A stretch of DNA of 64,000 nucleotides, taken from the NCBI GenBank assembly GCA_950295325.1, contig OX485805.1, positions 42,926,758 through 42,990,757 on the forward strand. The letters run 5' to 3'. The notes beneath the pieces were generated by a model. That model saw nothing but the letters and a program-made list of their open reading frames with translations, was not told where the DNA came from and did not search any database. Of this stretch, positions 1,540 through 26,541 are shown piece by piece; the first letter of the stretch is position 1; the number at the start of each line of letters is the position of its first letter. A program made the translations under genes and the position numbers. This DNA comes from Polytrichum commune (Eukaryota > Streptophyta > Polytrichopsida > Polytrichales > Polytrichaceae).

Positions 1540-1676
1540 CTGCAACGCGTCAACGCAAGAACACATGTGTTAGTTTAGGGAGGAAGACCCAAACGTGTCA
1601 CACATTCATTTTTTAAGTGCAAAATGATTGTAATGCGCGGATAACCATGTTTTTTTTGGGGGGGGGGGGGGTTCAC

Positions 1677-2030: not shown

Positions 2031-2173
2031 CTGGATCCAAAATTGGAACAAAACAAAACCCAAGGAAAAGGGGGGAGATAGAGCGCGTGAAAATCAAGAT
2101 ACATATGAAGCGTAAATTACACAAAATGGGCAGGCGCATATACACACACACACATACAAACACACGTACTGTC

Positions 2174-4239: not shown

Positions 4240-6064
4240 AGATTGATGTCCTCATCAATGCCTACGCTTCATTTTATTGGAATCCTTAGCCTTAGTTTCT
4301 TCAAAGTGCTTCACCAATTCATTGGTGTTCACCATGTCTCTTGCCGCCACCCAAGCGGTTTCTTTCTCATGGTATCCTCACCATTTCACCAAGTACTCCT
4401 TTGTACATTTTCTTTCATTTTCACTTGGGCTTCCTACACTTGAGGATGTCCTCCTACCTCATGTTCCAAATGATCTCCACAAGGTCGGGACGTGGCCTAA
4501 CCACTTGCTTGTGTTCGGGCCACAAGGTGTCGTCCTAAAATGACTTTCGTAATGAGACATGAAATGTCGGATGCACTTTGATCTCGGGCGGTAATTCCAA
4601 CTTATACATGTCCTTGAACACTTGTTCCACAATGGAAAACGAAGCTCCAATTTTGGACATGAACTTTTGGAATGAGGCCTTTTGGGTAAATGAAGTTGTT
4701 CACATTCAACAACATCTTTTGGCCCACCTCATTCTCCACTTTGCGTCTTCCGGCATTGACTTGCACCTCGTAGCACCTTCGGGCTTTCTCCACCAACAAC
4801 TTGGTCATCTCCAAGACTTGTTTACCATCCTTGGCCAAGTCCTCACCATCTTGGTTGAACTCTAGTGTTGAATGTGCCCCCTCGAGAGCTAGGTTAATAG
4901 GTTGGAGCGCATCCACTCCATAAGCCACCACCAAAGACCACCCCTTGGTAGCCAAGTGCGTGGCTACATTGCAATTACACTCCGCTCGACCCACATAGTC
5001 CGCCCAATCTCTTTGGTCCGCCCCCACCAAGTTCCTCAAGTATTGCTTCAAGACTCCATTCACACGCTCCGCTTTCCCATCCATTTGGGAACGCAAGGCC
5101 GTGCTAAACCTTAGTTTCATTCCGACCTCCTTAGAGAAATGCATTGAAAATGCACTTGTGAACTTTGGATCTTGATCCCACACAATCACTTTTGGCAACC
5201 CGTGGTGCCTCAACCATCCTTTGAGAAAAGGCTATGCGGTCTCCAACGCGGTGGCGGTTCCCACAATCGGCACCATGTGTGCCAACTTGGCAAACCGCCC
5301 TACCATCAACAAGATGGCATCATACCCATGTGACTCCGGCAAACTTGTAATCAAGTCCATACACATACTATGCCATGGCTCCAACGGGATAGGCAACGGT
5401 TGCAAGAAGCCGCCTTGCTTTTGATAAGAGGTTCGGTTCACTTGGCACTTTAATTCAAGCCTTCACAAAGTGGGTTATATCCTCCTTTATGCACCGCCAA
5501 TGGTACCTCTTTGACACCATTCTATGGCGGTTTTTTCTTTGTCCTCTATGGCCGGCAATAGGACAATCACATTCTTCCTTCTAAATGGATAGCCTCAACT
5601 TGCCTTGTGGCACATACACCCGACTTTGCTTGCACTTGAACAATCCGTCCACCAACTTAACCTCTTAGAGCACCTTGCTCTTGCGAAGCTTACCTAAAAG
5701 CATTTGTGCTTCGGGGTAGTTAATTTACCCCTCCCGTATCTTGCATCACAAGTTTCCCTCACCGGCACACATTAGCCACAAGGTTTGGATGGTTCTCATT
5801 GCTTGGAACTCTTCCCGTCTACTTAGCGCATCCGGCACCACATTTCCACGGTCCGGTTTGTGGACCAAATCCACCTTCATAAGCGCCAAACTATATATCA
5901 TGCCACCGCAATGACTTGGCGCTCACTTGCGCTTGTATGTCAAAATACTTTTAGGACACATTGTCCATGTAGACCTTTGCTTTGTGCGACCTCAAATAAT
6001 GTCGCCACATCTTCAAGCAATGCACTACGGCAAAGAAGTTCTTTGTCATGAGTTGGTTGTCCTC

Positions 6065-6770
6065 TTTGACAACCATCGAGCCTCAAGCCCCCATATGCAA
6101 TGCCCATCCATCTTACATTAACAATCCACCATTGGCAAAGTTACTCGCCCCCGTATGCACCTCAAAAGGTTTGTCAAACTCCACGAACTTGAGCACGGGC
6201 GGCAAAGAGAACTTGCTCTTAAGCCCCCTAAAGACTTGGTGACAAGGCTAGTCCCACTCTTGGGATAGCCATTTCTTTGACAAGTCGGACAAGGTCGGCC
6301 AACCATCGAGCTTCATGCTCCCATATGCAATGGCCATTTTTTTTTTACATCAACATCCGCCAATGGTAAAGTCACTCGCCCCCGTATGCACCTCAAAAGG
6401 TTTGGCAAACTCCGCAAGCTTGAGCACGGGCGGCAAAGACAACTTGCTCTTAAGCTCCCCAATGGCTTGGTGGCACGGCTCATCCCACTCTTGGGATAGC
6501 CATTTCTTGCACAAGCCGGATAAGGTTCGACAACCATGGAGCTTAATGCTCTCATAAGCAATGGTCATTTATCTTGGATCAACATCCGCCAATGGTAAAG
6601 TCCTTCGCCTCCATGTGCACCTCAAAATACTTATGAAAACCCGGAAACTTAACCACATCTTGTGAAGGGAACTTGCTCTTGAACTTCCCAAAGGCTTGGT
6701 GACCAGGCTCATCCCACTTTTGGGATAGCTATTTCCTCAATAAGTTGAGTAAGGTCTTAGCAACCTTAAA
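6065..6770 (-). repeat. 229-bp tandem repeat in element A, three copies
   Basis: The marker AGCCATTT (+ strand), following CTCTTGGGAT, recurs at 6267, 6498 and (as AGCTATTT) 6727, a period of 229-231. Each unit covers the start of the RNase H domain that is single-copy in the coding element (about 41990-42235). Confidence 0.85.
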
Positions 6771-7569
6771 ACAAATCTAGAATGAAGTGGTGGTAGTAGT
6801 TGGCTAGGACAACCAATGACCTAAGCCTTTTTTGAGTCAAGGGCCAATTCTCCTCTTGGATTGCCTTGACATTCTTCATGTTTGTCCACCAACTTCCTTA
6901 GTCACCACATGCCTCAAGAACTCAATTTCTTGTTGAGCAAAGTTATTTTTCACTCCTTGGCGGTAACTTTTGGGCAACACATTGGCGAATACATCATTGT
7001 ATCTCACCAACATCCCACCAAAGTGGTTTAGGGGAGGCCCATCTTTCCTAGCCTCCCCATAAGTTCTATCGAGTTGCTCCAATTGAACGACGACCATTAT
7101 GTTGGCCATTTTTCATTTGGTCCATTAAGACCAAATTCAACTTGGGTCCTCCTACCATAGGAGTCCTTATCAATTTGAACTTCATCTCTTTGCCATTATG
7201 ACACATCATAATGCACCGCAAGCACACCGGCTTGCACCTCACATCTCTCATGTGAGTTTCAAAGAAGGTGACCTTTTCAATGACATGCACGTCACTTATT
7301 TCACATAGAGTGAAATCTTGACAAAAATCTAATGTCCCACATCAAAAGGTTACATGCATCGCCGCCTCCTTTGCTTCATGCGGTTCGCCCTTTGCAAACC
7401 GTACTTTGGTGGGCTTGCCGGCTCTACCCGTCCGCGAGCCCCAACCCCCTTGTGAGCTTTCGGCTCATGAAAGAGTCCGTTGCCTCTTTGACAACTCATG
7501 AGACATATCTCCCATTCATTTGAGCCTCAAGGTATACATGACTTGGCCTTGGCTTAAGGCTACTAGCCT

Positions 7570-7905
7570 TGGCCACAAAGCCACCATCTAATTCTCCGTC
7601 CACCGCAACAATATGTTTTGGCTCGGTCCGCAAAGCCAACTTTTAACATTTCGTCCGTGGGACGAATTGGTTTAGTGCCACAAAAGCAATTTCCAATAAT
7701 TTGTCCACAAAACAAACATGTTTTCCCTTGATAGCACAAAGCCACCTTCCCACACTCCGTATGCGGCACGAACATGAATTGCCTTGGTAGGACAAACCCA
7801 CCTTCCAACATTCCGTCCGCGGCATGAGTATGATTTGCCTTGGAAGCATAAAGCCACCTTTCAACATTCCGTTAGTGGCACCAACATATTTTGCCTAAGT
7901 AAAAT
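7570..7905 (-). repeat. 56-bp tandem repeat in element A, about six copies
   Basis: The unit runs on the theme 'gccgcggacggaatgtt..' then 'aaggtggctttgt', 'ccaaggcaa'. It derives from the stretch between the gag zinc knuckle and the protease, which occurs once in the coding element (43640-43700). 56 is not a multiple of three, so each added copy breaks the frame. Confidence 0.85.
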
Positions 7906-8545
7906 GAACCAAACAATTTGCACTCATTTCTTTGGGACCAACTTTGGCTAAAGCCACTTGTGGTGATGCGCCGCCAAACTTTTCTTCGGGACCATCGGAT
8001 TCAATGATCTTGCAAACTTGATGATCCCCACCATGTCCTCAAGAAGCCTTGGGGACTTAAACAAGGCATCCACCACCCGCTTTTAAAACCCCACCTAAAA
8101 CGATGCATTTCTTAGAAAGCTCGTCCGTTTTAGGTGTATCCTTCATTTGTGCGTTTGAATAGCGCACATAGGCCTTAAGAGGCCCCGGGTGCCTCATTAG
8201 CACCAAGTTCATTTCAACATCCGAACCTTCGAAGCATCTCGAATTGAAATTTCAATCCAACATTAATACCCTCCAAGGTTTTGGGTGCATTCGGTATTCT
8301 AGGCCCCAAATACTATTTGAGGTTTGCGGGAGCCCTTTCAAAGGACACCTCCATTTTCCTCACCGAATCCACCCTCATGCCCACCATTACCATTAAAATC
8401 AATGGTATGGTCAAACTCCATTTGCACATGATCCTTGTTCCAATTTGAGCCTCACAACCTTTTGGAAACCCCGGGCTCACCATCATAACCCGCATTTTTG
8501 ATACCCATGTTTCCCTCAAAGTGCGAGCTCAAAACTTGGAACCCT

Positions 8546-8557
8546 GCTCTGATACCA
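8546..8557 (-). other. Primer binding site of element A
   Basis: TGGTATCAGAGC on the minus strand, two bases inside the 5' LTR. It matches the usual initiator-Met tRNA primer site of plant LTR elements. Confidence 0.9.
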
Positions 8558-8559
8558 AG

Positions 8560-9531
8560 TGTCGCAACCCTTGCTAGGTCCCTTAACAATCTTGCCAATT
8601 TTCGTTTCTAGCAAAGGTTACGAGCGCTAACCATTCGCATTCCGCCATGCTAATGGATAGCTCCTCTTACCCCGGACCAATTGTTCATAGGAGGGAACCA
8701 ACCCTCCTACTTTGCTTTCGGGACTCACCCCTTAATCGGTAACCCATTTCCCCAATGTGGACTTCCATCCATGGAAGTCCAATCCTATGTTGATCATCGC
8801 GTTGCCGGAGCAACACTACAACAACCCGAAGCATACTAGGCAACTATGGCCTCACAATAGGCCAAAGCCCATGGAGGCCTTGCCGTTCGGCCTCGGGTGG
8901 GTGAGGCCACACCACCTCACCCATATAAGCCTCTAGGACTCTACGCGGGGCCCCTACCCCACCGTCAACCAACCTCTTGTCTCTCTACCAAGAGTTGGGG
9001 CCAAGTGGACATTTTCCCTTAGCCGCTGGGCCTAGAAGCCCCCAGCAGCTTCAGACCATCATAACTTCCTTGTATGATGTCTGATCATAACAACCAACCA
9101 CTCCATCTTCATCTACGCTTCACGTAGATGCCGATGGACTCCTCACTTGCCCCATTCGGGCAAGTGGTGAGGAAGTTATGCCTGTTTGAACCTTGGCAGT
9201 CCCGGGAATCACTCCCAGGCACTGCTGTAGCAGGGCGCTGTCCCGGGACAGCGCCCCACTCAAATGGCCATAACTCCTAGCTCACACCTCGGATTGAGGT
9301 GTTCTTGAGCATTCTAGAATCACCACGCCATGAGCTACGCATAGCTCATGGCCTTACCCTTGTGCCTCCTAGTCTTCGTGGATGGGAGGCGTTCCCAACG
9401 CCCGGGGACCTCATCCACACTAGGATCACTTGGGCCCTCTCACCAACGGTGCCACAAGTCCCGGGTGTCACTCCGGGGTCCCCCTTGTGCCCATGGTGTT
9501 TCGGGCACTCCTCATGGAGAGGTGCGCGACA
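8560..9531 (-). repeat. 5' LTR of element A
   Basis: 972 bp. It reads the same as 2469-3440 wherever I compared it. Its outer end is followed by the target duplication GGACG. Confidence 0.93.
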
Positions 9532-10054
9532 GGACGCCTATCAAGGACGGTCGCTGGTCCCAAAAAATGGGCTTCAAGACCTTGAGGTATTGGGGGGAAG
9601 CGGGGTTGTTTGGTTTTTTGACGACTTTGCCGTCCTGTGTGTACAATATTCTACAGGCTTCCTGTGCTAGGACCATGCAGGGGGGCTCGATGCCCTTGAA
9701 AATGAACTCCACGACCGCATTGGTGTTCTCGGCCGTCATGGAGCTCCACACGACCACCCACCATCGTTGTTGGGCGATCTGGAGGAAGGTCCGAAGCCAC
9801 GGGCGGAGGTGAACTAGTTTGCTCTTTATGAACGTGGGCGGCCCGTCGTAATTAGCGTCCTCGGGCTTGCAAAAGGGCACCGTGGGGGTCCTAGGGCAAT
9901 GAACGCATTGGACGAGGACCCCGTTCAGGTCTAACACCAGGAATCGTTTCTTCGGCAGCGGGGGCGGGGCGGGTAAAACCGGGGCCGCCGCCGCGCTGCC
10001 CTCTCCGCTCCTTGGGGAAGAGCGTCGGGGAGCCGCTACGCTATGCTCCGAGCC
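9532..10054 (-). pseudogene. FCP1/NIF-like phosphatase, 5' part (split by element A)
   Basis: Minus-strand exon starting after an acceptor (TATCCGCAG|G at 10055/10054) at a codon boundary. It encodes a Pro/Ala/Ser-rich lead, then the FCP1-homology core: KKRFLVLDLNGVL, then KLVHLRPWLRTFL and VVVWSSMTAENTNAVVEFIF, which are hallmarks of the NIF family. These enzymes dephosphorylate Ser/Thr, for example on the RNA polymerase II tail. Here the nucleophile motif DxDx is DLNG, with the second Asp replaced by Asn as in a plant subgroup, so activity is uncertain even before the insertion. The domain continues at 2468 after element A. No initiating ATG exon was found between here and gene J, so the first exon is missing or unrecognised. 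Confidence 0.8.
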
Positions 10055-10341
10055 CTGCGGATACGAGCGAGAGAAAACGGGGGCGACTTATGTCATGCTA
10101 TGTCCAAACGAAGCATTAAGGAAACGAGCGTTCTCGGTGCAAACACAAAAGCATTTGATTCATTTTGGAGGGGGTGCAACAAGGGATACAAGGGATACAA
10201 GAGCATACAAAATACATTCAAACACAATATACAAGTATATAGGAGTCAAAAATGGTGATTATATTATATACAATGCTCTATGTACATCTTGATTGGGGGA
10301 GCCGCGTTGAACGATGCGTTCAAACTAGCCTACTTCTACAT
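10055..10341. other. Spacer or intron upstream of the phosphatase exon
   Basis: No gene recognised. It ends in a good splice acceptor for the phosphatase exon and lies just downstream of gene J on the same strand. The first phosphatase exon may lie here or further upstream, but I found no convincing ATG. Confidence 0.4.
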
Positions 10342-10540
10342 CTAGAAAAAATTGAAGAGACGGGCCGCCGTGATGAAGACTTCGTTGCAAAGCCGGGGGT
10401 AGGTGGACGAACGAATGGTCGCTGGGGGTGACGAAGGGCGCGAGTGCCGGGGGGGGCCTAAGTTCGTCCTAGCTAGGGGACACGACCAAGGCAAGAAGTC
10501 AAAGACCCAGGAAGTTTGGGTCGGCCGACCCAAACTGAGT
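10342..10540 (-). CDS. Possible 3' end of gene J
   Basis: The minus-strand open frame crosses one copy of the dyad (10513-10536) and ends in RLCNEVFITAARLFNFF before a TAG. It may be a terminal exon of gene J or 3' UTR. No splice pair was settled, so this is a weak call. Confidence 0.2.
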
Positions 10541-10909
10541 GGGGTCAGTGCATTACCTCGCCTTGGTCGTGCCTTGACGACGTTGATGCCGGCATCGCGT
10601 GCGCTGCCCCACCTCTGTCACCGCCGCCTCCGACGACGCCGTCAGCCGCAACCTGCTCCTGCAAAGGCTGACTGTCAGGCCTTTGTCCCAACCCAACCTC
10701 CGCATGCGCATCATGCATTGGTTCATCGACTGGGTTAGGAGTAGAGGTATCACCAGGCCCTTGCGGGCCTTCAACATCTAGCATAGGCTCGTCGACCGGG
10801 GTCTGATGGGGGACGGGGTTTGGGTCGGCCGACCCAAACCCTGCTGCTTGGCGAGGGTCGCTCTGCGACGCTGCAACGTCGGCACTGTTTGGGTCGGACG
10901 ACCCAAACA
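10513..10909. repeat. Three copies of the 24-bp dyad in the 3' part of gene J
   Basis: Copies of the consensus TTTGGGTCGNNCGACCCAAA lie at 10513-10536, 10817-10840 and 10886-10909, with middle NN = GC, GC and GA. Outer bases extend the symmetry to 24 bp. The last two lie inside the open 3' exon of gene J and are translated as GRPTQT or FGSxDPN-like peptides depending on frame, so protein sequence seems not to be what is conserved. Confidence 0.9.
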
Positions 10910-12034
10910 TGTGGGGGTCGTCCCGCTGGTGGTGTGGGGGCAAGAGGATGGGAGGCCGGAGCGGGGGGGTGCCAACGAGCTGGACGCTCCGGGGACGCGC
11001 CAAAGGTTTGGATCATCCACCTGCTGCACAGGCGCGTAAGGACGGGCGTGCGGCTGCAGCAAATCCGCGAAGCTGAAGGAATGCTCCAACGCCGGCCGCG
11101 GGCGGATATCCTGTGGAGGGAAGCCTGCGGGCAAGTGAGGGAATGAACTCGGGGGAGCCATCACCAATCCCTGCGCCAGCATGCCCTGGATCACTTGCGT
11201 GATGAGGTCCGCTTGGGACGGAGTTTGGGACATCGCCCTTTGCCGCTCCTGCTCCAACAGGAGAGCCCTCAACTCCGCGACTTCGTTGCGGACAGAGGGT
11301 TCCTCGGCGGCAGCCCTCTGCAGTCGCACACGCTGCTCCTCGTCTCGGAGCATTTTTGCGTTCGCCTCCTCCACGGTGAGGACCTCCGGTTTCACCCTCA
11401 CATTCCCGGCGAACGCTCTGGGGGAGGCAGGATCAGACCTCAGCTTCTTGGCGAGTTCCATGTCGTCCTCGTCCTCGGAGCTTATTGCGATCGTCTCCTC
11501 CACCGCATAGTCCCCGTACAGCTTCTTCCCCTTCATCCTTCTACGCTCCCTGAAGGTGGCCGTCGCGTCCCTCGAGTACATATCCTTGGCGTCGTCCACC
11601 GTCAACGCGGGCACCAGCCTGCTCTGCGGCGTGGCAGGCCGCATGGCCTTCTTCCGCTGAGGGGCCTCGGATTCTTGAGTGAATCCTGTTGCCCCTTCCT
11701 CCACCTCCCCCTCCACTTTCTCTGCTTCCTCCTCCGCCTCCTCCTCGTCTTCCTCCCCCTCCTCCCCAACCCTGCCACCTGCTCCCATAGACGGATTGCC
11801 CGGATGCAACCCGATGAGCGGCTCTGGCAATTGAACGGGGGCCCGCATGGCGAATTCACCCGGGTTGATTCGCCTCGCAATATCCAAAGGATTCTTGCCC
11901 CCCTCGACGATCTCTTCGACGTAGGATCCGGGTATCCAGTCGAGGATGTCCATTCTCTTGGCCAGCGCCTTTTGGGTCCTGTAGAATTGAACATCGGCAT
12001 CCTCTACATAGGAGTAGATGTTCAACCCAGACAT
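10778..12034 (-). CDS. Gene J, exon 3: methyltransferase-like end plus acidic coiled tail
   Basis: The exon starts right after an acceptor (TGATTGTGCAG|ATG at 12034). It opens with MSGLNIYSYVEDADVQFYRT, which follows the FGGS motif of exon 2 exactly as the 'GR.wiGiE..p.Y' strand follows motif I in class-beta DNA methyltransferases. Then come a Glu-rich low-complexity run, a basic stretch (FRERRRMKGKKLYG), an acidic SUMO-interaction-like patch (ETIAISSEDEDDMEL), a coiled coil rich in Glu/Arg/Ala, and a Pro-rich tail. The frame stays open to 10778, but the end is uncertain: another frame (10545-11003) reads an acidic PVDEPM-type tail more like that of the paralogue K, so a frameshift or extra splice is possible. 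Confidence 0.65.
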   Translation of the reverse strand: MSGLNIYSYVEDADVQFYRTQKALAKRMDILDWIPGSYVEEIVEGGKNPLDIARRINPGEFAMRAPVQLPEPLIGLHPGNPSMGAGGRVGEEGEEDEEEAEEEAEKVEGEVEEGATGFTQESEAPQRKKAMRPATPQSRLVPALTVDDAKDMYSRDATATFRERRRMKGKKLYGDYAVEETIAISSEDEDDMELAKKLRSDPASPRAFAGNVRVKPEVLTVEEANAKMLRDEEQRVRLQRAAAEEPSVRNEVAELRALLLEQERQRAMSQTPSQADLITQVIQGMLAQGLVMAPPSSFPHLPAGFPPQDIRPRPALEHSFSFADLLQPHARPYAPVQQVDDPNLWRVPGASSSLAPPRSGLPSSCPHTTSGTTPTCLGRPTQTVPTLQRRRATLAKQQGLGRPTQTPSPIRPRSTSLC

Positions 12035-12116
12035 CTGCACAATCAAAATCAATACTATTAGTAACACCAAATGAACATATAATGGAAAATGACTTCCAAA
12101 CAAAATAAGAATAGTT

Positions 12117-12212
12117 AGTTTGGGTCGCTCGACCCAAACTATGCATGGCCCTAGTTTGGGTCGCTCGACCCAAACTGTGCATGCCCCTAGTTTGGGTCGT
12201 TCGACCCAAACC
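12117..12212. repeat. 36-bp tandem array of the dyad in intron 3 of gene J
   Basis: Dyads at 12117-12140, 12153-12176 and 12189-12212, exact period 36, with NN = CT, CT and TT. They sit inside the GT-AG intron 12035-12245. Confidence 0.93.
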
Positions 12213-12245
12213 GAACGTATAGGGACTTCTGGGTTTTCTGCTTAC

Positions 12246-13577
12246 CATGGCTGCAAAAATCGGTTTGGACCCCCCGAAAACGTTGAAGATGCAGTCCCCT
12301 CTCTTCGTGAGGGTCCTCATCATCCGCAGGTAGAACTCCATGCGCAGCTCATCCGCGGGGTAGTTGGCGTACTTCGCCTCGTCATATAAGCTCCTGCTGG
12401 TACCCAACCCTTCTTGGACTTGGAAGAGCTTTTCCATCCTGGCTATGGGATGGTTTGGCACCTTAAGCAGCTCAGCTTTGTACACGAAGTACAAACACAG
12501 CACGTTGACGATCTTCGTCTTCTTGTCTTTCAGCGTGCTGTACGCCCCCTCCGCCGGTGCAGCAACGTAGTGAGATTTCGAGACGGCATACTCCGGCTGC
12601 AATTTGCGCACGATCTCGTAAACCTGCTCTGCCCTTCTGTCCTCGACAATCCAGAGCCAGACGTCGACCTCCCTGAATTTGGGGCTGGCGTAGTCCACGA
12701 ACTTCGACAAGAAAGGATCGTAAAAAGGGGTGCTCATAGTCCCCTCGAATGAGGCTCCAGGGATGTTCCTGAAGTCTATCATTCCGAAGGGGAAGCGGTC
12801 CCCGGCTCTAGTCCTGATCGCCTTCCTTGACTCAGAACCCGGCCAACCCTGGATCCTGAGAGGTTCGACAGTGACCATGTTGAATTGCGCATCGCCTTCG
12901 AAACTGACGATCTTCTTCTCCTTTATGAAGTTGGAGAAGGCCCGCACTGAGTGTTCGGGAAGCGCCCGGTTCCTCCCCCCCTTCACGAGCTTGGATCTGA
13001 GGAAGTCGTCTCCCGCCTCCCTCATGAGTGCCGCCATGGACGCACTGGTAAACTTATATTCGGCTTTGAAGGCCCTCCAGTGCGCCTCGTCGACCTCTCC
13101 GTCCACGATGAGCTTCTTCTCTGGCACAAGCTTGTGCAGCTCCTGGACGATGGTCGTCTTCTTCTTCCTGTTCTCCGTCCATTCCTTCATTGTGTAGCAT
13201 GAAGGGACGAAGATCTTGGGTTTGGTGAAGACGATCTTAGGGTGGACCCAGCATCTCTTCGCCGTCGTCTCCACGTGTAGGATGTGGGACGCCGCTTTTC
13301 CCATCTCTGTCTCGGAGAGACCTTGAAGCGCTCTGAAGAACTCCCTCACCAGAGGCTTCATTTGCTTGAAGCGCGTAGTCTGGTTGAAGAGCATGCCGGT
13401 GTCGGGGTCCATGAGGTCCCCCGTCTCGTGTTTTTCAAAAACACTCTTCCATCTTGCCCATACGGAATCGGACGCTGTGATCAAATAGATTTCTCCTCTC
13501 AGCTCGTTATACTTTTTCTGCTTGTGGCTAGCATTGTCGATCGAGGAGAATTTATTGATCATTTGATATTTGAAGTC
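12246..13577 (-). CDS. Gene J, exon 2: degenerate DNA-methyltransferase-like domain
   Basis: 444 codons, acceptor CCTGTGCAG|GAC at 13577 and donor GCCATG|GTAAGC at 12246. The second half reads like a class-beta N4/N6 DNA methyltransferase. There is a strand at the motif IV position (MIDFRNIP instead of the catalytic DPPY type), then a helix and strand region VDVWLWIVEDRRAEQVYEIVRK resembling 'lkpgG.l.iw...q...i...l', then PADELRMEFYLRMMRTLTKRGD and motif I as NVFGGSKPIFAAM (usual form DpFaGSGTT..AA). Numbering from the ATG in exon 1, motif IV is near residue 710 and motif I near 875-886. With DPPY and the second Gly lost, it is probably inactive as an enzyme but may still bind DNA or a nucleotide. 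The family call is inferred from motif order. Confidence 0.6.
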
Positions 13578-13638
13578 CTGCACAGGAAGACATTAGCACA
13601 TGTTAGACAACACATAATGGAAAAACAAATGCAACAGC

Positions 13639-13833
13639 AGTTTGGGTCGAACGACCCAAACTATGAACCTGGCGAAAACATCTTAACAATTTCAGAGTTT
13701 GGGTCGACCGACCCAAACTATGAACCTGGGGACAATATCAAAATAATTTCAGAGTTTGGGTCGACCGACCCAAACTATCAACCTGGCGATGACAACAAAA
13801 CAATGTAGGAGTTTGGGTCGATCGACCCAAACA
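13639..13833. repeat. 57-bp tandem array of the dyad in intron 2 of gene J
   Basis: Dyads start at 13639, 13696, 13753 and 13810, exact period 57, with NN = AA, AC, AC and AT. Together they fill most of the GT-AG intron 13578-13840. The spacer is 'tatgaacctggcga..' with variation. Confidence 0.93.
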
Positions 13834-13840
13834 TACTCAC

Positions 13841-15166
13841 CTCCCATTTGGGGTTCTTGTCTTTAGCATTCTCCCTTTCCTTGGGAGGCCTCCCATAAAA
13901 CTCCCACACCTCCCTCGAGGCCATGATGTTTCTGATCCACGATGCCTGATAGGCCCTCTTTTTGTTCCCCATGTTGAAGAACCTGGAGATGTCGCTGAGG
14001 ACCGTCTCGTTGTCCGACCAAACCACCAAAGCCTTCCAAACTTTTAGCTTCTCCTTCTGGTTGTTCGGGTCGTCCCACTCGGTCATCAACTGGATTTTTT
14101 TCGAGGCCTCCACACTGTGCTGCCCGTCAATCAGCCAGAAGTCTCCTTTAGAGATTGCCGGCCACATCTCAGGCGTCGGCATTCTTTTCAGCCCTTGTGG
14201 CATGACAACAATTGTCTGCCTGTCGTCCTTGAATTGCCCGCCCAAGATTTGAGCGACCATCCAGTCGACGTAGGCGTCCTCCTTGGCTCGGACGCACTTC
14301 TCTGGTGGCGCAAGGTGGCACTGCGCAATGTTGACCTCGAATTTGAAGTCCCTGCCCATGAAGAAGCAGTGCAGGCATTTTGTCTCGAAGTTGTTGTTTA
14401 TTTTTTGTATTTCGCCTGCATCCACCTCTTGGCCAGGCTTCGGCATCCGGAGCTCCGGGGAAACAGGCTCGTCAGTCATCCCCGATGACTCTCTTCCCCT
14501 CTTGGAAGGGGTCGTCTGACGGCTTCCTGATGGCGTTGGCGTCTCGCTGTCAGCCGGCGTTGTTGTAGTGCTCGTCCGTCTCGAGTCTGCAGGGACCGCC
14601 CGCGGTTTCCTCACAGTTTGTGGTCTTGAGGACCCTGCGCCTTCTTCCGTCGTTGCCTTCCGCCTCACAGGCTGCTGCGTCTTGGGTTTGCTTTGCAGCG
14701 CCTTGTTGAGAACCGTGATAGCCTGTTTTAACTTCGTGAACCTGCTCGCAACCTTCGTGTTCGTTACACTACCATCTATGAATATGGCCTCCGGTTTTAT
14801 GGTTTCAGGGTCGACGCAAGTCTCCTTGGCGTACAGGGGGTCGAAGGGCTCGGAGAAATGGTGCATGAACATGTGGACGTTCTGCACGGCGGAGTTCTCC
14901 AGTATCACGTCTACGTAGTCCCCGAGAGACTGGACGGACGCAACCTCCCATCCCGTCAGCGTTGCCCAGGTGTGCTGCTCGTGGGTCCCCACCTTCACCA
15001 CGAATAGCAGCTTGAACATGGATGCCTTCACCACCTGAACGGACCATGCCAAAACGACGCCATCTTTTGGGACGTAAGAATCGTCCTGTGGAGTTTCATA
15101 CTCCTGCCAAAGGTGGTCTGGCGCGAGCATGAACCACCTGTCACCTGGTCTCTTTTTAGGGGCCAT
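13841..15166 (-). CDS. Gene J, exon 1 of the coding part: ParB/sulfiredoxin-like domain
   Basis: 442 codons from ATG 15164-15166, which immediately follows an acceptor (TTGGATTGCAG|ATG), to the donor TGGGAG|GTGAGT at 13841. Residues 1-160 are unrecognised. About 160-255 is a basic Ser/Thr/Pro-rich linker. About 255-400 resembles a ParB N-terminal-type domain: INIAQCHLAPPEK, then TIVVMPQG, then WLIDGQHSVEASKKI (usual IDGhHR..A), then a strand and SDISRFFNMGNKKRA, like the 'N..R...s' region. In bacteria and phages ParB-like domains are often fused ahead of DNA methyltransferases, and the same order is seen here across exons 1-3. The usual Arg of DGxHR is Ser. The ATG at the exon start fits the 5'-UTR intron described separately. 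Confidence 0.6.
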
Positions 15167-16252
15167 CTGCAATCCAAGAAATCGAAACTGTGAGTTTCGG
15201 TCGATCGACCCAAAGTATTGCAATGTGCATTTAACATTTGGAGGATTGACCCAAACATTTACTTAATTTTCAAAGTCGTTTTAAAAGATCTTTTAGATTT
15301 TAAAGTGTGGTTTAGGTGGTCACCCTGTAATGTTTGGGTCTAGCGACCCAAACATGATGAGGCTGCAAATTTAGGTATCTCAACACATTCATTTCAGACT
15401 GCAATGTTTGGGTCGAACGACCCAAACAATTGCTTAATTTTGGAAGTTCTTTTATATTTTACAATGTGGTTTAGTTCTTCTCCCTGTAATGTTTGGGTCG
15501 AGCGACCCAAATATGTTAGGCTGCAAATTTAGGTAGCTCAACCCATTCATTTCAGACTGCAATGTTTGGGTCGAACGACCCAAACAATTACTTAATTTTC
15601 AAATTTCTCTTTTATTTTACAATGTGCTTTAGTTCTTCTCCCTGTAATGTTTGGGTCGACCGACTGAAACATGTTAGGTTGCAAATTTAGGTAGCTCAAC
15701 CCAATCATTTCAGACTGCAATGTTTGGGTCGAACGACCCAAACATTCATTTAATTTTCAAAGTTCTTTTATATTTTACAATGTGGTTTAGTTCTTCTCCC
15801 TGTAATGTTTGGGTCGAGCGACCCAAACATGTTAGGCTGCAAATTTAGGTACCTCAACCCAGTCATTTCAGTCTGCAATGTTTGGGTCGAACGACCCAAA
15901 CATTTACTTAATTTTTGAAGTTCTTTTATATTTTACAATGTGGTTTAGTTCTTCTCCCTGTAATGTTTGGGTCGAGCGACCCAAACATAATGAGGCTCCA
16001 ATGTTTGGGTCGCTCGACCCAAACAAGAGGCTGCAATGTTTGGGTCGAACGACCCAAACATTTAGTTCATTTTAGGCTGCAATTCAAATATTTATTATAT
16101 TTTAATATGAGTTTGGGTCGTCTCCCCAAACTACTGTGTTTCCAGATGCATGTTTAATGCTTGGGCAACATATACAATGCTTATGCATTGTATATGTAAC
16201 AGGAACCTAAAGGGAATGATGCAAATTGTGTGCACTGATGCAAATTGCTTAC
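15167..16252 (-). other. Probable 5'-UTR intron of gene J
   Basis: On the minus strand a strong donor (GACAAG|GTAAGC, intron from 16252) and a strong acceptor (TTGGATTGCAG at 15167) bracket 1086 bp. The sequence upstream of the donor has no ATG for about 240 bp, as expected of a 5' UTR. The whole 158-bp satellite lies inside. Inferred, not proven. Confidence 0.6.
15193..16133. repeat. 158-bp satellite with two dyads per unit
   Basis: Dyads start at 15331, 15405, 15490, 15563, 15648, 15721, 15806, 15879 and 15964, then more closely at 16002 and 16037. Degenerate copies lie near 15193, 15236 and 16110. Alternate dyads are 158 (once 159) bp apart. Unit text between dyads is 'ggctgcaaatttaggta..' and 'ttctccctgtaa'. 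Half-units are about 73 and 85 bp. Arms are conserved while the central NN varies (AA, AG, AC, CT). Confidence 0.93.
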
Positions 16253-16500
16253 CTTGTCTTTCAAACTCTTGAAAGTTGCTCTCACAATCTGCTTCTTACA
16301 ACCAGACTCAGAAACTCTGTTGTGGCACTAAAGAACAACTCTCACAAAGATCTCAGAAACACAATGAATCTCTCAAGCACCCTAAAACTTTCTCACAAAC
16401 CCCCTGATTCTTGCAAACTCAGGCCTAATTTGAAAGACCTCTACCTTTCTATCACACTCGACCGTGCTCACTTCTACTCAACCTAAAATCACTCCATGCA
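16253..16500 (-). other. Probable 5'-UTR exon of gene J
   Basis: Minus-strand sequence ending at the donor AAG|GTAAGC. It is free of ATG apart from one near 16495 that meets a stop after one more codon. It looks like a leader exon. The transcription start was not located. Confidence 0.4.
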
Positions 16501-17566
16501 TGAATTTTACAAAACAAGTAAGGAGTTCAACACAATAAACCGCTCCGAACTCACTCAAAGCTAACACTCTGGACCAAGAAGAGAGAATAAGAAGAGGAAG
16601 ACAATAACACGAGGAATAGAATGAGAGAAGAGGAGGAGAAGCATCAGAGAGGAGGAGAGGAATGAAGGAGAAAGAAGAATGAAGGGAAGCGGCGCGACCA
16701 AGACAAAAGCAAAAGGTGCGAGAGGAAGCGCTTAGCGCGGCGCTATGGAAAGTGGCGGCGGCGTTTCCAAGAGCGGCGCTTGGCGCGGAGGAAGAGAGGA
16801 AGAAAAAGAGAGAAAGAAAAAAGAGGAGGGGAGAGAAGGAGAGAGCGGAAGGGGTCACCCTAAACCCTCGAATCCGGGCCATTAGATTGCGCCGGGCCCA
16901 TCAACGGCTCAGAAGCCTCGCGGGCCAACACCTTGCCAGGTGTCGACACCTCCTTGGTTTAGGTGGTTGCCCGCGAGGCTTGTGGTGTTGACACCTGCCA
17001 CCCTAGGGAGATTGCCTTCCTGGTTGTCCTTGCCCCTAGGTGCGGGACATAGGAGGGCCGGCGCCTCTCTTGGCCGCCCGGCCCCGGCCTTCTAACCCGC
17101 TATTCATTAGCGGCAATTCAATACCAGTCAAAAACCTACGTGGACTAAGGTATTCCACAAAATTAACACCATCACCAACTCATATTTTAATGGTGTTCAA
17201 TTGAATGATCACCCGTTGGAATTGATAACATCGTTGAATGTAGCCATTATCGTTTTGGTGTATGAATAATGTAATTTATGGAATCATATGAGAGTGTTAC
17301 AAAGTCTAAGAGGAGTAAGTCATAATTATATTGCAATCCACAAAGGCAATTACACGGTGCAATAATATAAATATGGTAACCATTCACATGGTTAACAGTT
17401 TAGGATTATGTATTGTAATTTATATGATGGTTGTTGGTAGAGGACAATGCTCTAGTCTATAATGGATACCCTAACAAGTAGCATTAGAGTGAACATTAAT
17501 ATATGTACTTAGAAGTTCACATTTGAAGTACATGGGAGAAACAAATGATTACACGTTCATTCCGAG
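16501..17566. other. Intergenic region between gene J and the DUF7869-like gene
   Basis: 16575-16850 is strongly GA-rich on the + strand, and the long Ser/Leu/Phe-rich minus frame across it is a composition effect. 16880-17095 is GC-rich and 17100-17560 AT-rich. The two genes diverge from here, so promoters for both probably lie in this stretch. No RNA gene or terminal inverted repeat was recognised. Confidence 0.5.
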
Positions 17567-20280
17567 GTGGATCCCACTCATAGGTTCTCCCTCCGCAGGT
17601 GGCCATTGAGGAATGTCACAATTGATGGAGTTAGCTTGCGTGAACATGAGCAACGACACATGCAAATCGAAAAGGAGGTGCAATCAAACATGCGGCCGCG
17701 CAAGGGTCAAAGAAAGTACGATACATTGGCACGTCCTGCTCCGTCTGCAACTGATTGTAAACGTCAAAGGTTGCTCGGGGAGGAGTCCATTAGAGAAGTT
17801 GCCACAAAGGATTGTTGTGTGCATCGTTGTTGCCAATTGTTTCCAAGGGATAAATTGAAGGTCATCCGCGAAGAAATGTGGCTTGGAGATTTCCGTCTAA
17901 GATCCACAAGAAAACTTGATGTCCATAGGGCGATACATGTGAATGGGACGGGTCACAAGGTCATCACCATTGAAAGCATAGACGTGTGTTGTAAGGCATG
18001 GTACACCATTCACGGTGTGTCGAAATCGGACTTTTATAGACAAGCTGCTTATGCCAAGGAAGGCCGCCGGTCCCGTCACCATGGTAACGTGGGTTTAAAG
18101 AAGCCTAGGGAAGCAACAAGGCAAGCAACGGCCACTCTAGCAACCATCATTGTCCCTCTTGCCGATGCAATGCCGCACAAAACACGCACACTCACAACCG
18201 GTGAAAAGGTTGTGGAGAAAGTTCTTCCCACAGGCACAAAATGGAAAGACATATTGTTGGACGTTAATGCAGTTGGCGAGAAGATTGGGTTGGAGCCAAT
18301 TTCATTGTCAAAATTGAGTGCAATCAAGAAACAAAACTTTAGCGAATACATTACAAAAAGACGAGGGGACAAATTTGCCAGGTGCTCTAATTGCGAGAAG
18401 TTGAAGCGCCTCCGGGATGCACACACGATGGGCACCGAGTCATATGCAGCGCATCAATTGAACTATTTCAAGCACGTAAACATGCAAGAGGCACACCGTA
18501 ATGATTACTACACAAATAGAGCTTTGTCCATCTCCAGGCCCTTGGAGGTTCTTACGGTCATCCATGACAAAATGGACCATGCCAAAACAGCCTCCCCATG
18601 TTTTGCAAATCGAATCAAGGCCACGGATGGGTTTTTCAAGTTGCCTGTATCGGTTACAGGTGAACTTCGAAACAATGTCATGACATACTCTAAATGTTGT
18701 TGTATTTTATTCCGTGATGTACTGGAGAACATGGATTCCTTCATAATGGTTTATTCATACATAGATGCTAATCACGTTGGGTTGGCATTGCAGGAATGAT
18801 TGCACATGGACACGGTGATGTCAAATTTGCTCATTATGCTCTTGATTTGTATCCAGCGGATTCAAACCACACGATAGGATCATTTGCAAGGTTTTTACGT
18901 GATTTAGAGAAACCACCAGCCTATTCTTCAGGATTGTTATTTGAGAACACGGGTTCAACACCTTTATATGAAGCGGTGTTGGATGGAAAAGATGTATGCT
19001 TGCATTCGTTGCCCGAGCCACCCAATGAACCCGTGATTGCCAAGAAGTTGCCTCCAACTTTGCGTGTCCAATTGGACAATTGTGCCAAGGACAATAAAAG
19101 CAGATATGTATTTGCATATTGGTCGTTGTTGGTTGCGAAAGGCATTTTCAAGGAGGTTTTTGTGTCCTTCCTATTGGTAGGCCACACACACGATGATATT
19201 GATGCATCTTTTGGGCGGTGGAGCATGAAGTTGCGGGAGGAGGATTTCCCTACAATTCCATTATTGATGAAGTCGTACATGGATTTGGAGAACGTTCCCG
19301 TCATCCCCCATATGATTGAGGAGATGCCAGACTTCAAGGCATTTATAGAACCTTATATTCGAAGTGGAGCTCACCGATTGATCGGGCATACGAAGGCACA
19401 ACAATTCCGCTTCTATATGGGTGACGATGGTGTCCCGGCCATGCAATACAAGTTGTTGTGCACGTCACAAGACTGGAGCCCGCCGGAGGGTCTTCTTGTG
19501 TGGCGCGTGGATGCGGATGGAAAGACCATGTTACCGGATGGGGAGCCTAGGCCTTGTAAGCCAATAGCCATGAAGAATTTGGAGGATATTTTGAAAGGTA
19601 TATCAGGCTTCATACAATATTGGGAGAGTTTGAAAATAGCGGATGTTGGCGGATCATGTTGGCATCGTTATGGGAGTTGGATACATTATTGGACACGTGT
19701 TCGTGCCGCCTTGGCAGACCTCCACCAAGATAGCCCTCATACTTTGAGGCATGGATTTTGGCCACAAACACGAGTCGATGTACAAGCTTCAGAGCCTAGT
19801 CTTTTGGGAAATGGAGAGGTTCGAGAGGAGTTTGATGTGGACGACCATTACGTGGGGCCTGCTAGTAGTCGTCCCCCACCATCTTTCCGCATTGCAGTGG
19901 ATTGTCATGAAGGTTATATGCTCATTTTGCGTCCTGGAGACGAGACATATGCGAAGCCAGTGTGGGTGGCAAGAGCTTTGTCCAATCCCAATTTTGTAAC
20001 TTCCAGCCCTCATTTTCGACAAATACAAGTGGAGTACTATCGACCGACAGCAAGGAATGAAGATGTGATTCGGCATTATACAGGCTGGGATACAAACCCT
20101 AACTTTCGGTGGAAGGTGGATTCTGAGCACGGTCCATCTTGGGTAGATACAGATTCCATATTCATAGCATGGAAACCACGGAAACACCATAGTGGATCAG
20201 TGTCCATCCCTCAAAAGTACATAACTTTTGCAAAAGACAACCTTGCTCGGATTGCAGAAGAAGCAACCCACGTTGAATGA
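17567..20280 (+). CDS. DUF7869-like protein, probably transposon-derived
   Basis: Two open blocks (17567-18659 and 18794-20280) join through a 134-bp GT-AG intron (GTTACAG|GTGAAC to GGCATTGCAG|GAATG). The splice restores VTGMIAHGHG and gives 859 residues. Motifs fit DUF7869-type proteins: an N-terminal CCVHRCC cluster, KARCSNCEKL-like cysteines, DKMDHAKT near residue 334, QLDNCAKDNKSRYVFAYW near 459 and GHTHDDIDASFGRWSMKL near 493. The three acidic motifs (D, D, D in GHTHDDID) look like an RNase H-fold, DDE-like triad; that is inference. The start is uncertain because an acceptor-like TCCGCAG|G lies 30 bp inside. The frame is otherwise undamaged. Element B inserted about 190 bp past the stop. 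Confidence 0.7.
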
Positions 20281-20471
20281 GAAGTTGGTAGGATTGTGTT
20301 AGCATGATTATAGTTTAATACGTAATTATAGCAATATAAATTACACATATGTGTGCTCTTCAAAATTGGGGCAGAGTTTGGGTAGAACTTACGAATACTA
20401 TATTGTTTGGAGTTGGATGAATATCCATTTACTATATTTCAAGCTGCAATTGAAGTTCATCTTATTATTAT
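20281..20471 (+). other. 3' flank of the DUF7869-like gene
   Basis: AT-rich, no coding signal, probably 3' UTR. It ends in ATTAT, the target site duplicated by element B. Confidence 0.5.
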
Positions 20472-21444
20472 TGTCGCAACCCTTGCTAGGTCCCTTAACA
20501 ATCTTGCCAATTTTCGTTTCTAGCAAAGGTTACGAGCGCTAACCATTCGCATTCCGCCATGCTAATGGATAGCTCCTCTTACCCCGGACCAATAGTTCAT
20601 AGGAGGGAACCAACCCTCCTACTTTGCTTTCGGGATTCACCCCTTAATCGGTAACCCATTTCCCCAATGTGGACTTCCATCCATGGAAGTCCAATCCTAT
20701 GTTGATCATCGCGTTGCCGGAGCAACACTACAACAACCCGAACCATACTAGGCAACTATGGCCTCACAATAGGCCAAAGCCCATGGAGGCCTTGCCGTTC
20801 GGCCTCGGGTGGGTGAGGCCTCACCACCTCACCCATATAAGCCTCTAGGACTCTACGCGGGGCCCCTACCCCACCGTCAACCAACCTCTTGTCTCTCTAC
20901 CAAGAGTTGGGGCCAAGTGGACATTTTCCCTTAGCTGCTGGGCCTAGAACCCCCCCAGCAGCTTCAGACCATCATAACTTCCTTTTATGATGTCTGATTC
21001 CAGCAACCAACCACTTCATCTTCATCTACGCTTCACGTAGATGCCGATGGACACCTCACTTGCCCCATTCGGGCAAGTCTTGAGGAAGTTATGCCTGTTT
21101 GAACCTTGGCAGTCCCGGGAATCACTCCCAGGCACTGCTGTACCAGGGCGCTGTCCCGGGACAGCGCCCCACTCAAATGGCCATAACTCCTAGCTCACAC
21201 CTCCGATTGAGGTGTTCTTGAGCTTTCTAGAATCACCACGCCATGAGCTACGCATAGCTCATGGCCTTACCCTTGTGCCTCCTAGTCTCAGTGGATGGGA
21301 GGCGTTCCCAACGCCCGGGGCCCTCACCCACACTAGGATCACTTGGGCCCTCTCACCAACGGCGCCACAAGTCCCGGGTGTCACTCTGGGGTCCCCCTTG
21401 TGCCCATGGTGTTTCGGGCACTCCTCATGGAGAGGTGCGCGACA
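20472..21444 (-). repeat. 3' LTR of element B
   Basis: 973 bp, TG...CA. It differs from its partner for instance in ACCCCCCCAGCAGC versus ACCCCCCCTGCAGC and CACTCTGGGG versus CACTCCGGGG. Confidence 0.92.
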
Positions 21445-24400
21445 CTCACCCCCACCAAACGGAGTCGATGCCCTCATCGACTATACTCGTAGTCGGCACA
21501 CCAATTCTCAAGTTGCCATCCTCTATGGTGCGGCATTGTGTTTACCTTAGGGCGCGACCCCCACAATGCATCTTCAAATTTGGCATAGTCCCAAAGGTGT
21601 CGTTCCTAGGTGGTCCGTTAGCGACATTGGATCTTTCATCCAAGGACCTAACCTATACTAGACCAACCTACTTTGGGACTCACTTGGGTTGCCCCTCCTT
21701 TGGGGCCTCCCCCGTTAGGCTCCACTAGCCTAACGTGACACATCTAGGCGAGACCTCAACGCTTCCACTAAGTTGTCTCGGTTGCAACTCCGAGATGGCT
21801 TTCCATTGTTAAGCCACGCCTCGATCGCACGGGGGTGATGCCAAGTCCCGCCCGACTCGGTTCCCACTTTGCTCTTTCGAGACATGGGTTCATGACTCCC
21901 ATGCGCCAACTCTCGTTAGCTCGCGGGTAGCACTTTTATGAGCACGCACCATCACCTTGTCCCCGCCCGGACAAGCCCACAACTAAGAAGTTTCTTGGTT
22001 TTATCCAAGGCCCCTCCAAGCCATGGCCCCCAATTACTCGGCTTACCCAACCTAGTTTGGCATGTCTATTCCCCCTCTTCCACTAACCAAGCACAAGTAC
22101 AAGACTAGGACCTCATCTCATACTTTTCTCTTTGCACCACTAAAGTTTGGACTTTATTCCCTCAAGCCAAAGAACAAGTTCATGTTGTGGAGTAATTAGC
22201 CTCGAAGCTAAGTGTGCTACTAGCATCTCTCCCCCACTAAAGGAGATTGATGTCCTCATCAATGCCTACGCTTCATTTTATTGGAATGTCTAGCCTTACT
22301 TTCTTCAAAGTGCTTCCCCTATTCATTGGTGTTCACCATGTCTCTTGCCGCCACCCAAGCGGTTTCTTTTTCATGGTATCCTCACCATTTCACCAAGTAC
22401 TCTTTTGTACATTTTTTTCATTTTCACCTGGGTTTCCTACACTTGAGGGTGCCCTCCTACCTCATGTTCCAAATGACCTCCACAAGGTCGGGAGGTGGCC
22501 TAATCACTTGCTTGTGATCGGGCCACAAGGTGTCGTCCTAAAATGACTTTCGTAATGAGACATGAAATGTCGGATGCACTTTGATGTCCGGCGGTAATTC
22601 CAACTTATACATGTCCTTGAACACTTGTTCCACAATGGAAAACGAAGCTCCAATTTTGGACATGAACTTTTGGAGCGAGGCCTTCCGGCTAAGTGAAGTT
22701 GTTCACATTCAACAACACCTTTTGGCCCACCTCATTCTCCACTTCGCGTCTTCCGGCATTTACTAGCACTCCGTAGCACCTTCGGGCTTTCTCCACCAAC
22801 AACTTGGTCATCTCCAAGACTTGTTTACCATCCTTGGCCAAGTCCTCACCATCTTGGTTAAACTCTAGTGTTGAATGTGCCCCCTCGAGAGCTAGGTTAA
22901 TAGGTTGGAGCGCATCCACTCCATAAGCCACCACCAAAGACCACCCCTTGGTAGCCAAGTGCGTGGCTACATTGCAATTACACTCCGCTCGACCCACATA
23001 GTCCGCCCAATCTCCTTGGTCCGCCCCCACCAAGTTCCTCAAGTATTGCTTCAAGTCTCCATTCACACGCTTTGTTTTCCCATCCATTTGGGAATACACG
23101 GCCGTGCTAAACCTTAGTTTCAATACAACCTCCTTAGAGAAATGCATTGAAAATGCACTTGTGAACTTTGGATCTTGATCCCACACAATCACTCTTGGCA
23201 ACCCGTGGTGCCTCAACCATCCTTTGAGAAAAGGCTATGCGGTCTCCAACGCGGTGGCGGTTCCCACAATCGGCACCATGTGTGCCAACTTGGCAAACCA
23301 CTCTACCATCAACAAGATGGCATCATACCCATGTGACTCCGGCAAACTTGTGATCAAGTCCATGCACATACTATGCCATGGCGCCGACGGGATAGGCAAC
23401 GGTTGCAAGAAACCGCCTTGCTTTTGATAAGAGGCTCGGTTCACTTTGCACTTTGATTCAAGCCTTCACAAAGTGGGCTATATCTTCCTTTATGCACCGC
23501 CAATGGTACCTCCATGACACCATTCTATGGCGGTTTTTTCTTTCTCCTCTAAGGCCGGCAATAGGACTATCAAATTCCTCCTTCAAAACCGATAGCCTCA
23601 ACTTGCCTTGTGGCACATACACCCAACTTTGCTTGCACTTGAACAATCCGTCCACCAACTTAACCTCTTTGAGCACCTTGCTCTTGCGAAGTTCACCTAA
23701 AAGTTTTTGTGCTTTTGGGGTAGTTAATTTACCCCTCCCGTATCTTGCATCACAAGTTTCCTTCGCCGGCACACATTAGCCACAAGGTTTGGATGGTTCT
23801 CATTGCTTGGAACTCATCCGGTCTACTTCGCGCATCCGGCACCACCTTTCCACGGTCCGGTTTGTGGATGAAATCCACCTTCATAAGCGCCAAACTATCA
23901 TGCCAACGCAATGACTTGGCGCTCACTTGCGCTTGTATGTCAAAATACTTTTAGGACACATTGTCCTTGTAGACCTTTACTTTGTGCGACCCCAACTAGT
24001 GTCGCCACATCTTCAAGCAATACACTACGCAAAGAAGTTCTTTGTCATGAGTTGGTTGTCTTCTTTGACAACCATCGAGCTACATGCTCGCATATGCAAT
24101 GGCCATCCATCTTACACATAATCCACCATTGGCAAAATCATTCACCCCCATATGCACCTCAAAAGGTTTGTCAAGCTCCGTGAACTTGAGCACGGGCGGC
24201 GAAGAGAACTTGGTGTTAAGCTCCCCAAAGACTCATGACAAACATCATCCCACTCTTGGGATAGCCATTTCTTCCACAAGTCGAACCATCGAGCTTCATG
24301 CTCTCGTATGCAATGGCCATCCATCTTGCATCAACATCCGCCAATGGTAAAGTCCTCGCCCCCCGTATGCACCTCAAAAGGTTTGTCAAGCTCCGCGAAC

Positions 24401-26527: not shown

Positions 26528-26541
26528 GCTCTGATACCAAG

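What the first reader, a model, noticed from the sequence alone, without database searches (positions are those of the whole stretch)
10513..16133. One gene carries about two dozen copies of a single dyad, arrayed in every intron
TTTGGGTCGNNCGACCCAAA occurs about 24 times in 5.6 kb, and I found none elsewhere in the window. It forms three arrays with different exact periods (158, 57 and 36 bp), one in each intron of gene J (counting the inferred 5'-UTR intron), plus three copies in the 3' exon region. Arms are constant while NN varies and the spacers differ between arrays. The dyad itself therefore seems to be what is kept or copied. Possible roles: a binding site for the gene's own ParB-like product (bacterial parS sites are also TGTTT...AAACA dyads), a methylation or silencing signal, or a self-copying short palindrome.
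Basis: partly seen in the sequence, partly recalled or inferred. Interest (0 to 1): 0.88.

Follow-up and report, generated by a model that had tools for sequence, protein, structure and literature searches.

The report
Transposon with self-recognition-like dyad arrays
A large jumping gene in an unnamed eukaryotic genome carries, in every intron of one of its own genes, copies of a 20-letter palindrome that is probably the docking site for that gene's DNA-binding protein, and the same palindrome turns up in a second, apparently unrelated kind of jumping gene that carries a similar protein.

Summary
In detail: 19 exact and 3 near-exact dyads at 10515-16058, arrays in all three gene J introns, three single copies in the 3' exon. 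But the genome has 9,731 exact copies. Window 657-27860 is one DNA transposon (28-bp terminal inverted repeats, 4-bp target duplication, two nested LTR retrotransposons). Gene J diverges from a DUF7869 gene (probable transposase). A homologue of its product models as a ParB/Noc-like plus amino-DNA-methyltransferase-like protein, with a degenerate catalytic motif. Between diverged copies (dS 1.1-1.8) orthologous dyad arms are 54/54 identical, central bases 3/6, flanks 74%. The dyad also sits in a MULE-like element that has its own ParB/methyltransferase-like gene. Best explanation: binding sites for the element's own ParB-methyltransferase protein, most likely acting on the element's chromatin (anti-silencing, like VANC in Arabidopsis). 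Transposon ParB-methyltransferases and VANC arrays are each published; the candidate target site and its sharing by two transposon types appear new. Binding and effect are untested.

The parts
657..27860 (.). Complete DNA transposon, about 13.1 kb once two nested LTR retrotransposons are discounted
   Evidence: 28-bp TIR AACACTATATTCGTTAAATTGAGACTTT at both ends; homologous ends in three other copies
653..656 (.). 4-bp target site duplication CTCT (left); the right copy is at 27861-27864
   Evidence: the other three copies read have ACTT, AAGG and ATAA
2468..9531 (.). Nested LTR retrotransposon 1, with identical 973-bp LTRs
   Evidence: self-comparison, LTRs 100% identical; absent from copies A, B and C at this place
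20472..27514 (.). Nested LTR retrotransposon 2
   Evidence: LTRs 99.7% identical
10778..15166 (-). Gene J coding region, 1304 aa as it reads, in three coding exons (15166-13841, 13577-12246, 12034-10778): ParB/Noc-like plus amino-DNA-methyltransferase-like protein. Near its 3' end the window frame differs from that of copies B and C
   Evidence: splicing; frames of B and C; folds from a homologue's model; dN/dS 0.05-0.12 against B and C in exons 2 and 3
15167..16252 (-). 5'UTR intron of gene J with the 158-bp dyad array (15195-16058)
13578..13840 (-). Intron 1 with four dyads at 57-bp spacing
12035..12245 (-). Intron 2 with three dyads at 36-bp spacing
10515..10534 (.). 3' dyad 1, after the stop codon; orthologous dyads in copies B and C
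10819..10838 (.). 3' dyad 2, in the coding exon
10888..10907 (.). 3' dyad 3, in the coding exon; its GA-centred form occurs 184 times in the genome (99 forward, 85 reverse)
17549..20280 (+). DUF7869 gene in two overlapping open frames (17549-18799, 18772-20280), divergent from gene J; probable transposase by inference
   Evidence: PF25273 E=1.3e-42 in the second frame only; second frame: 85 scored of 1866 candidates, all at least 96% identical, some with a stop codon
17553..17554 (.). Junction where copy A holds 3.5 kb of further DNA with a 78-bp-period array of 17 exact dyads; B and C have a 64-bp-period array between the two genes; the window copy has none there
9512..10087 (-). NIF/CTD-phosphatase-like open frame of the element, interrupted at about 9532 by nested retrotransposon 1
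   Evidence: PF03031 E=7.8e-9

Best explanation
The dyads are binding sites of the transposon's own ParB-methyltransferase-like protein (gene J product). A dimer would read the two 9-bp arms TTTGGGTCG/CGACCCAAA held 2 bp apart. Arrays in the introns and in the stretch between the two divergent genes let the protein load densely on its own element and so tell self from host DNA. The most likely outcome is a change in the element's chromatin or DNA modification that keeps it expressed, an anti-silencing system that works like VANC in Arabidopsis VANDAL elements. Shown here: the transposon, the gene and its introns, dyad conservation and spacing, co-occurrence with the gene, and the two folds in a homologue's model. 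Inferred: binding, dimer reading, loading, and the anti-silencing outcome.
Against: No binding, methylation or expression data. No part of gene J reaches the cut-off of any Pfam or NCBIfam model, and PHROGs gave nothing; the best Pfam matches of homologue P0093 are E 0.03 and 0.043, below cut-off. In place of the ParB CTP-binding box (recalled) stands DGQHSVEA, and methyltransferase motif IV reads DFRNxP, not DPPY, so enzymatic steps may be lost. Foldseek E-values are modest: one of 343 matches is at or below 0.001 (Noc, 2.9e-4); the methyltransferases are at 0.03-0.09. Homology between gene J and the MULE-side gene is not shown by sequence, and the MULE-side ParB model failed (pLDDT 48). Homologues at about 33% identity show no dyad peptide where the frame runs into the intron, and 0 of 30 MULE-side exon homologues show it; their DNA could not be read. 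Copies B and C carry stop codons in gene J (B one each in exons 1 and 2, C one in exon 1), so not every copy is intact. Of 100 listed GA-centred dyads, 44 were not near a scored gene J or DUF7869 copy.
Confidence: 0.55

Rival explanations
1. The protein binds the dyads but methylates them (N4C or N6A) or autoregulates its own and the transposase gene, rather than preventing silencing.
For: Methyltransferase fold in the homologue's model; for the Ectocarpus protein and its relatives it was suggested that they bind and epigenetically modify their own transposon (PMC12477816, passage); dyad arrays lie between the divergent genes in copies A, B and C.
Against: Motif IV is DFRNxP-like, never DPPY, in the alignment rows shown, which argues against an active amino-methyltransferase.
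Confidence: 0.2
2. A short palindrome that multiplies by itself (tandem duplication, cruciform- or hairpin-driven copying) with no binding protein.
For: Arrays of differing periods; 145 of 156 dyads with at most one mismatch have one or more further matching bases outside the core; high copy number.
Against: Single orthologous dyads keep 54/54 arm bases at dS above 1 while the centre changes; no free-standing copy among the first 100 places listed.
Confidence: 0.13
3. An RNA-level signal: the dyad forms hairpins in the pre-mRNA that affect splicing or small-RNA production.
For: Position in introns; one dyad ends 9-10 bases from the intron 1 donor in the window, B and C (the B copy has one mismatch).
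Against: Dyads also lie in the 3' exon, after the stop, and between gene J and the DUF7869 gene. A 2-nt loop is too short for an RNA hairpin unless a pair opens (recalled).
Confidence: 0.07
4. Internal binding sites for the transposase.
For: Many DNA transposons carry repeated transposase sites near their ends (recalled).
Against: The nearest dyads lie about 2.8 kb and 4.8 kb from the two ends once nested elements are discounted (own arithmetic), and two elements with different TIRs share the dyad.
Confidence: 0.05

Closest known systems
ParB-methyltransferase accessory protein of Sola1-1_Ec32 (Ectocarpus; similar proteins cited for green and red algal transposons), PMC12477816, passages seen
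   Same: A large protein with a ParB-like and an amino-DNA-methyltransferase domain (1104 aa there, 1304 aa here), encoded on the strand opposite the transposase in a DNA transposon of more than 10 kb
   Different: The passages I saw describe no target site; here a candidate target dyad is arrayed in the introns and shared with a second element type. The methyltransferase motif here looks degenerate. Whether the transposase is of the Sola-1 type was not tested
VANC / VANDAL21 anti-silencing system of Arabidopsis (PMC5735166: abstract and sections 8, 9; PMC10398659: abstract)
   Same: A TE-encoded protein with a short motif arrayed as changeable tandem repeats in introns of the element's own genes and upstream of the transposase gene
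   Different: VANC proteins carry DUF1985 and DUF287, not ParB or methyltransferase; the VANC21 motif is a 9-bp directional sequence, here it is a 20-bp palindrome; demethylation is shown for VANC and untested here
Bacterial ParB-parS and Noc-NBS (recalled, apart from the fold)
   Same: ParB N-terminal fold in the homologue's model; palindromic DNA site
   Different: No GERRxR-type CTP box by eye, no ParA partner sought, a different site sequence, many sites per gene, eukaryotic transposon setting

Membership tests
Transposon-encoded ParB-methyltransferase accessory proteins | encoded inside a DNA transposon | tested here: met
   TIRs plus 4-bp target duplications in 4 of 4 copies examined
Transposon-encoded ParB-methyltransferase accessory proteins | ParB-like domain | tested here: met
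Transposon-encoded ParB-methyltransferase accessory proteins | amino-DNA-methyltransferase fold | tested here: met
Transposon-encoded ParB-methyltransferase accessory proteins | opposite strand to the transposase gene | tested here: met
   head-to-head with DUF7869 in the window; 39 of 85 scored DUF7869 loci have a scored gene J exon 2 head-to-head within 25 kb. That DUF7869 is the transposase is inferred
Active amino-DNA-methyltransferases | motif IV DPPY/SPPY-like | tested here: not met
   DFRNxP-like in the alignment rows shown
Sola-1 transposons | Sola-1 transposase | not tested
   no Sola-1 reference sequence on hand; the 4-bp target duplication fits what I recall of Sola
VANC proteins | DUF1985/DUF287 homology | tested here: not met
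   no such Pfam hit for the gene J parts scanned
VANC-like systems (works like) | motif arrays in introns and upstream noncoding regions of the element's own genes | tested here: met
VANC-like systems (works like) | sequence-specific loss of silencing marks | not testable with these tools
   needs methylation or ChIP data
ParB-parS | CTP-binding GERRxR-type box | tested here: not met
   the conserved motif is DGQHSxxA; the box itself is recalled
Satellite or MITE | a common repeat unit longer than the dyad, or dyad-bounded mobile copies | tested here: not met
   different consensus units in the three window arrays; the dyad is internal to two larger elements
MULE | MULE transposase domain and long TIRs (second element, C1:2151952-2164281) | tested here: inconclusive
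   61-bp TIRs at 87%; no target duplication seen; SWIM zinc finger E 0.076, below cut-off; MULE motif by eye only

The most novel reading that the evidence does not exclude
Two transposon types with different transposases share one parS-like 'self' mark, a 20-bp dyad arrayed in their introns, read by transposon-encoded ParB-pseudomethyltransferase proteins that load on it and keep the element's chromatin open: a ParB-type self-recognition and anti-silencing system in a eukaryote, with the recognition gene and its sites moving as an exchangeable module.
Probability: 0.3. Interest if true: 0.87.

Novelty: new variant of a known kind. Interest (0 to 1): 0.72.

Why it matters
Transposon ParB-methyltransferase proteins have been noted in algae; the passages I saw name no target. 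This element supplies an explicit, high-copy, testable candidate target and a natural experiment: single orthologous dyads, arrays that turn over, and a second transposon type with the same dyad. If binding is confirmed, it would show a second origin, with unrelated protein machinery, for VANC-style sequence-specific control of a transposon by itself, and would bring ParB-type DNA loading into eukaryotic epigenetics.

Tried and rejected
Satellite/MITE: rejected, because the three window arrays have different units and the dyads are internal to larger elements. Transposase sites near the ends: rejected on distance from the ends and on different TIRs in the two elements. Dyad as coding constraint: rejected, because the two coding-exon copies read FGSxDPN in B and C and LGRPTQT in the window.

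Led nowhere: PDB sequence searches with exon alignments (nothing related); profile comparison of gene J with the MULE-side gene (not significant); structure of the MULE-side ParB part, pLDDT 48, not searched further. Paper searches: ParB + transposon + Sphagnum (none), DUF7869 (none), Sola + moss terms (listing only), Sphagnum genome (listing only). The peptides VSGDRPK (P0073, P0075, P0076), ISVDRPK (P0074) and VSVARPK (P0079) at the intron 1 dyad position suggested a changed palindrome; the palindromic form TTTCGG[G/T]CG has 0 copies in this genome, and the peptides do not fix the wobble bases, so this stays an unproven lead for other species.

The DUF7869 protein was not modelled. No shuffled control was made.
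Full report
THE OBSERVATION. The dyad TTTGGGTCGNNCGACCCAAA is present as described: 22 of the 23 window matches (up to 3 mismatches) lie at 10515-16058, 19 exact, against 0.03 expected in shuffles. The periods 158, 57 and 36 bp are confirmed. Gene J on the minus strand has GT-AG introns at 16252-15167, 13840-13578 and 12245-12035, and each holds an array; the product as it reads is 1304 aa with its stop at 10778. Two of the three 3' copies lie before that stop, one after it. Near the 3' end the window frame differs from that of copies B and C, so the last part of the window protein may not be the usual one.

GENOME CONTEXT. The genome holding the window (408 Mb, 64 contigs, unnamed) has 9,731 exact dyads and 0 of the reversed control pattern. 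Comparing the window with three dyad-rich regions of C1 shows one large DNA transposon at 657-27860, with the 28-bp TIR AACACTATATTCGTTAAATTGAGACTTT and 4-bp target duplications CTCT (window), ACTT, AAGG and ATAA. Two LTR retrotransposons are nested in the window copy (2468-9531 and 20472-27514), leaving about 13.1 kb. The element carries a DUF7869 gene (PF25273, E 1.3e-42, second frame) divergent from gene J, and a NIF-phosphatase-like frame. The DUF7869 frame has 85 scored copies of 1866 first-look candidates, all at least 96% identical; gene J exon 2 has 94 scored of 1228; some of both contain stop codons. Of the 85 DUF7869 loci, 39 have a scored gene J exon 2 head-to-head within 25 kb; the chance figure is about 0.003 per locus. 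That DUF7869 is the transposase is inferred.

WHAT IS CONSERVED. Copies B and C belong to a diverged subfamily. At three orthologous 3' dyads the arms are 54/54 identical to the window in both, the two central bases 3/6, and the rest of the region 368/497 and 367/497. Gene J dS between the subfamilies is 1.1-1.8 in exons 2 and 3 and beyond correction in exon 1, with dN/dS 0.05-0.12 in exons 2 and 3; against the near-identical copy A it is 0.20-0.40. B has one stop each in exons 1 and 2 and C one in exon 1. Intron spacers, dyad numbers and periods differ; in introns 1 and 2 the dyads are exact in 7 of 7 (window), 3 of 5 (B) and 5 of 6 (C), the other three with one mismatch; in the 5'UTR intron stretch 9 of 13 (window), 2 of 5 (B) and 3 of 5 (C) matches with up to 4 mismatches are exact. 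Two further copies (L028, L029) have exact dyads at all three intron positions, making 6 of 6 copies read. In the 245 kb examined, 145 of 145 exact arm pairs with gaps of 0-12 have a 2-bp gap; most of these regions were fetched for their gap-2 dyads, so this is biased, and the genome-wide count did not complete. One off-consensus site, TTTCGGTCGNTCGACCCAAA, lies near the 3' end of the 5'UTR intron in the window, B, C and L028.

WHERE ELSE IT OCCURS. By the regions I read, the first 100 genomic places (C1:438280 to C1:2159694) split into 81 in three DUF7869 elements, including arrays of 78 or 64 bp period between gene J and the DUF7869 gene, and 19 in copies or fragments of another element type, two of these placed by flanks only. 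That second type, complete at C1:2151952-2164281 with 61-bp TIRs but no visible target duplication, has a MULE-like transposase (by eye; SWIM E 0.076 below cut-off) with dyads between two of its open frames, a presumed intron. Divergent from it is a gene with a dyad array upstream of its first recognised exon, a presumed first intron. Two of its exons joined match N6_N4_Mtase (E 6.4e-4, below the cut-off) and a phage DNA methyltransferase family (E 1.6e-7); its ParB-like DGNHR motif is by eye. A dyad form with GA in the centre has 184 places; of the 100 listed, 35 lie 1.2-3.1 kb beyond a scored gene J exon 2, and 56 are near a scored gene J or DUF7869 copy. Only best-scoring copies were available for that test, so the other 44 are undecided.

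MODULARITY. dS between window and C is 0.31 for DUF7869 but 1.62 and 1.22 for gene J exons 2 and 3 and 0.74 for the phosphatase-like frame. Genes of one element thus seem to have different ages, which points to exchange of the gene J module between elements.

EXPLANATION. The arms are held at single sites, the centre is freer, and the one gene type I recognised in both element kinds is a ParB/methyltransferase-like gene. A palindrome read by a dimer of that protein is the simplest account. Arrays in introns and between the divergent genes match the layout of VANC21 targets in VANDAL21 (PMC5735166, sections 8 and 9 read; abstract of PMC10398659). The effect on chromatin is inferred from that likeness only.

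KNOWN AND NEW. A ParB-methyltransferase accessory protein in a Sola-1 transposon of Ectocarpus is published, with the suggestion that such proteins bind and modify their own transposon, and similar proteins are cited for green and red algae (PMC12477816, passages). Those passages name no target site. The listings (0 papers; 1; 8 listed of 9; 12 listed of 131) showed me no other report; I read no further papers, and the two works cited there were not read. PMC12859917 (passages) mentions unpublished VANC structure work only. Hence: new variant of a known kind.

Noticed in passing
C1:2157722-2158870 and nearby (L018:7722-8870), also L016 and L017: The MULE-like element also carries an array (64-bp period) of a second palindrome, CCCTGTGCGTTAACGCACAGGG, not found in the window or the regions of copies A, B and C.
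   Followed up: partly
window 17553/17554: The window copy lacks 3.5 kb between gene J and the DUF7869 gene that holds the 78-bp dyad array in copy A; A is 99% identical elsewhere, and part of that stretch is shared by B and C, so it was probably lost from the window copy recently.
   Followed up: partly
window 657-20280 against copies B and C: Genes of one element have very different synonymous divergence (DUF7869 about 0.3, phosphatase-like 0.7-0.8, gene J exons 2 and 3 1.1-1.8), suggesting module exchange between elements.
   Followed up: partly
window 2468-64000: Many nested copies of one LTR retrotransposon family with about 973-bp LTRs and internal 229-231-bp tandem repeats.
   Followed up: no
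L028:4574, window 15195: A conserved off-consensus dyad TTTCGGTCGNTCGACCCAAA sits near the 3' end of the 5'UTR intron in four copies.
   Followed up: partly
P0073, P0075, P0076: Homologues from other sources show VSGDRPK at the intron 1 dyad position, compatible with a changed palindrome; their DNA could not be read, and the palindromic form is absent from this genome.
   Followed up: partly
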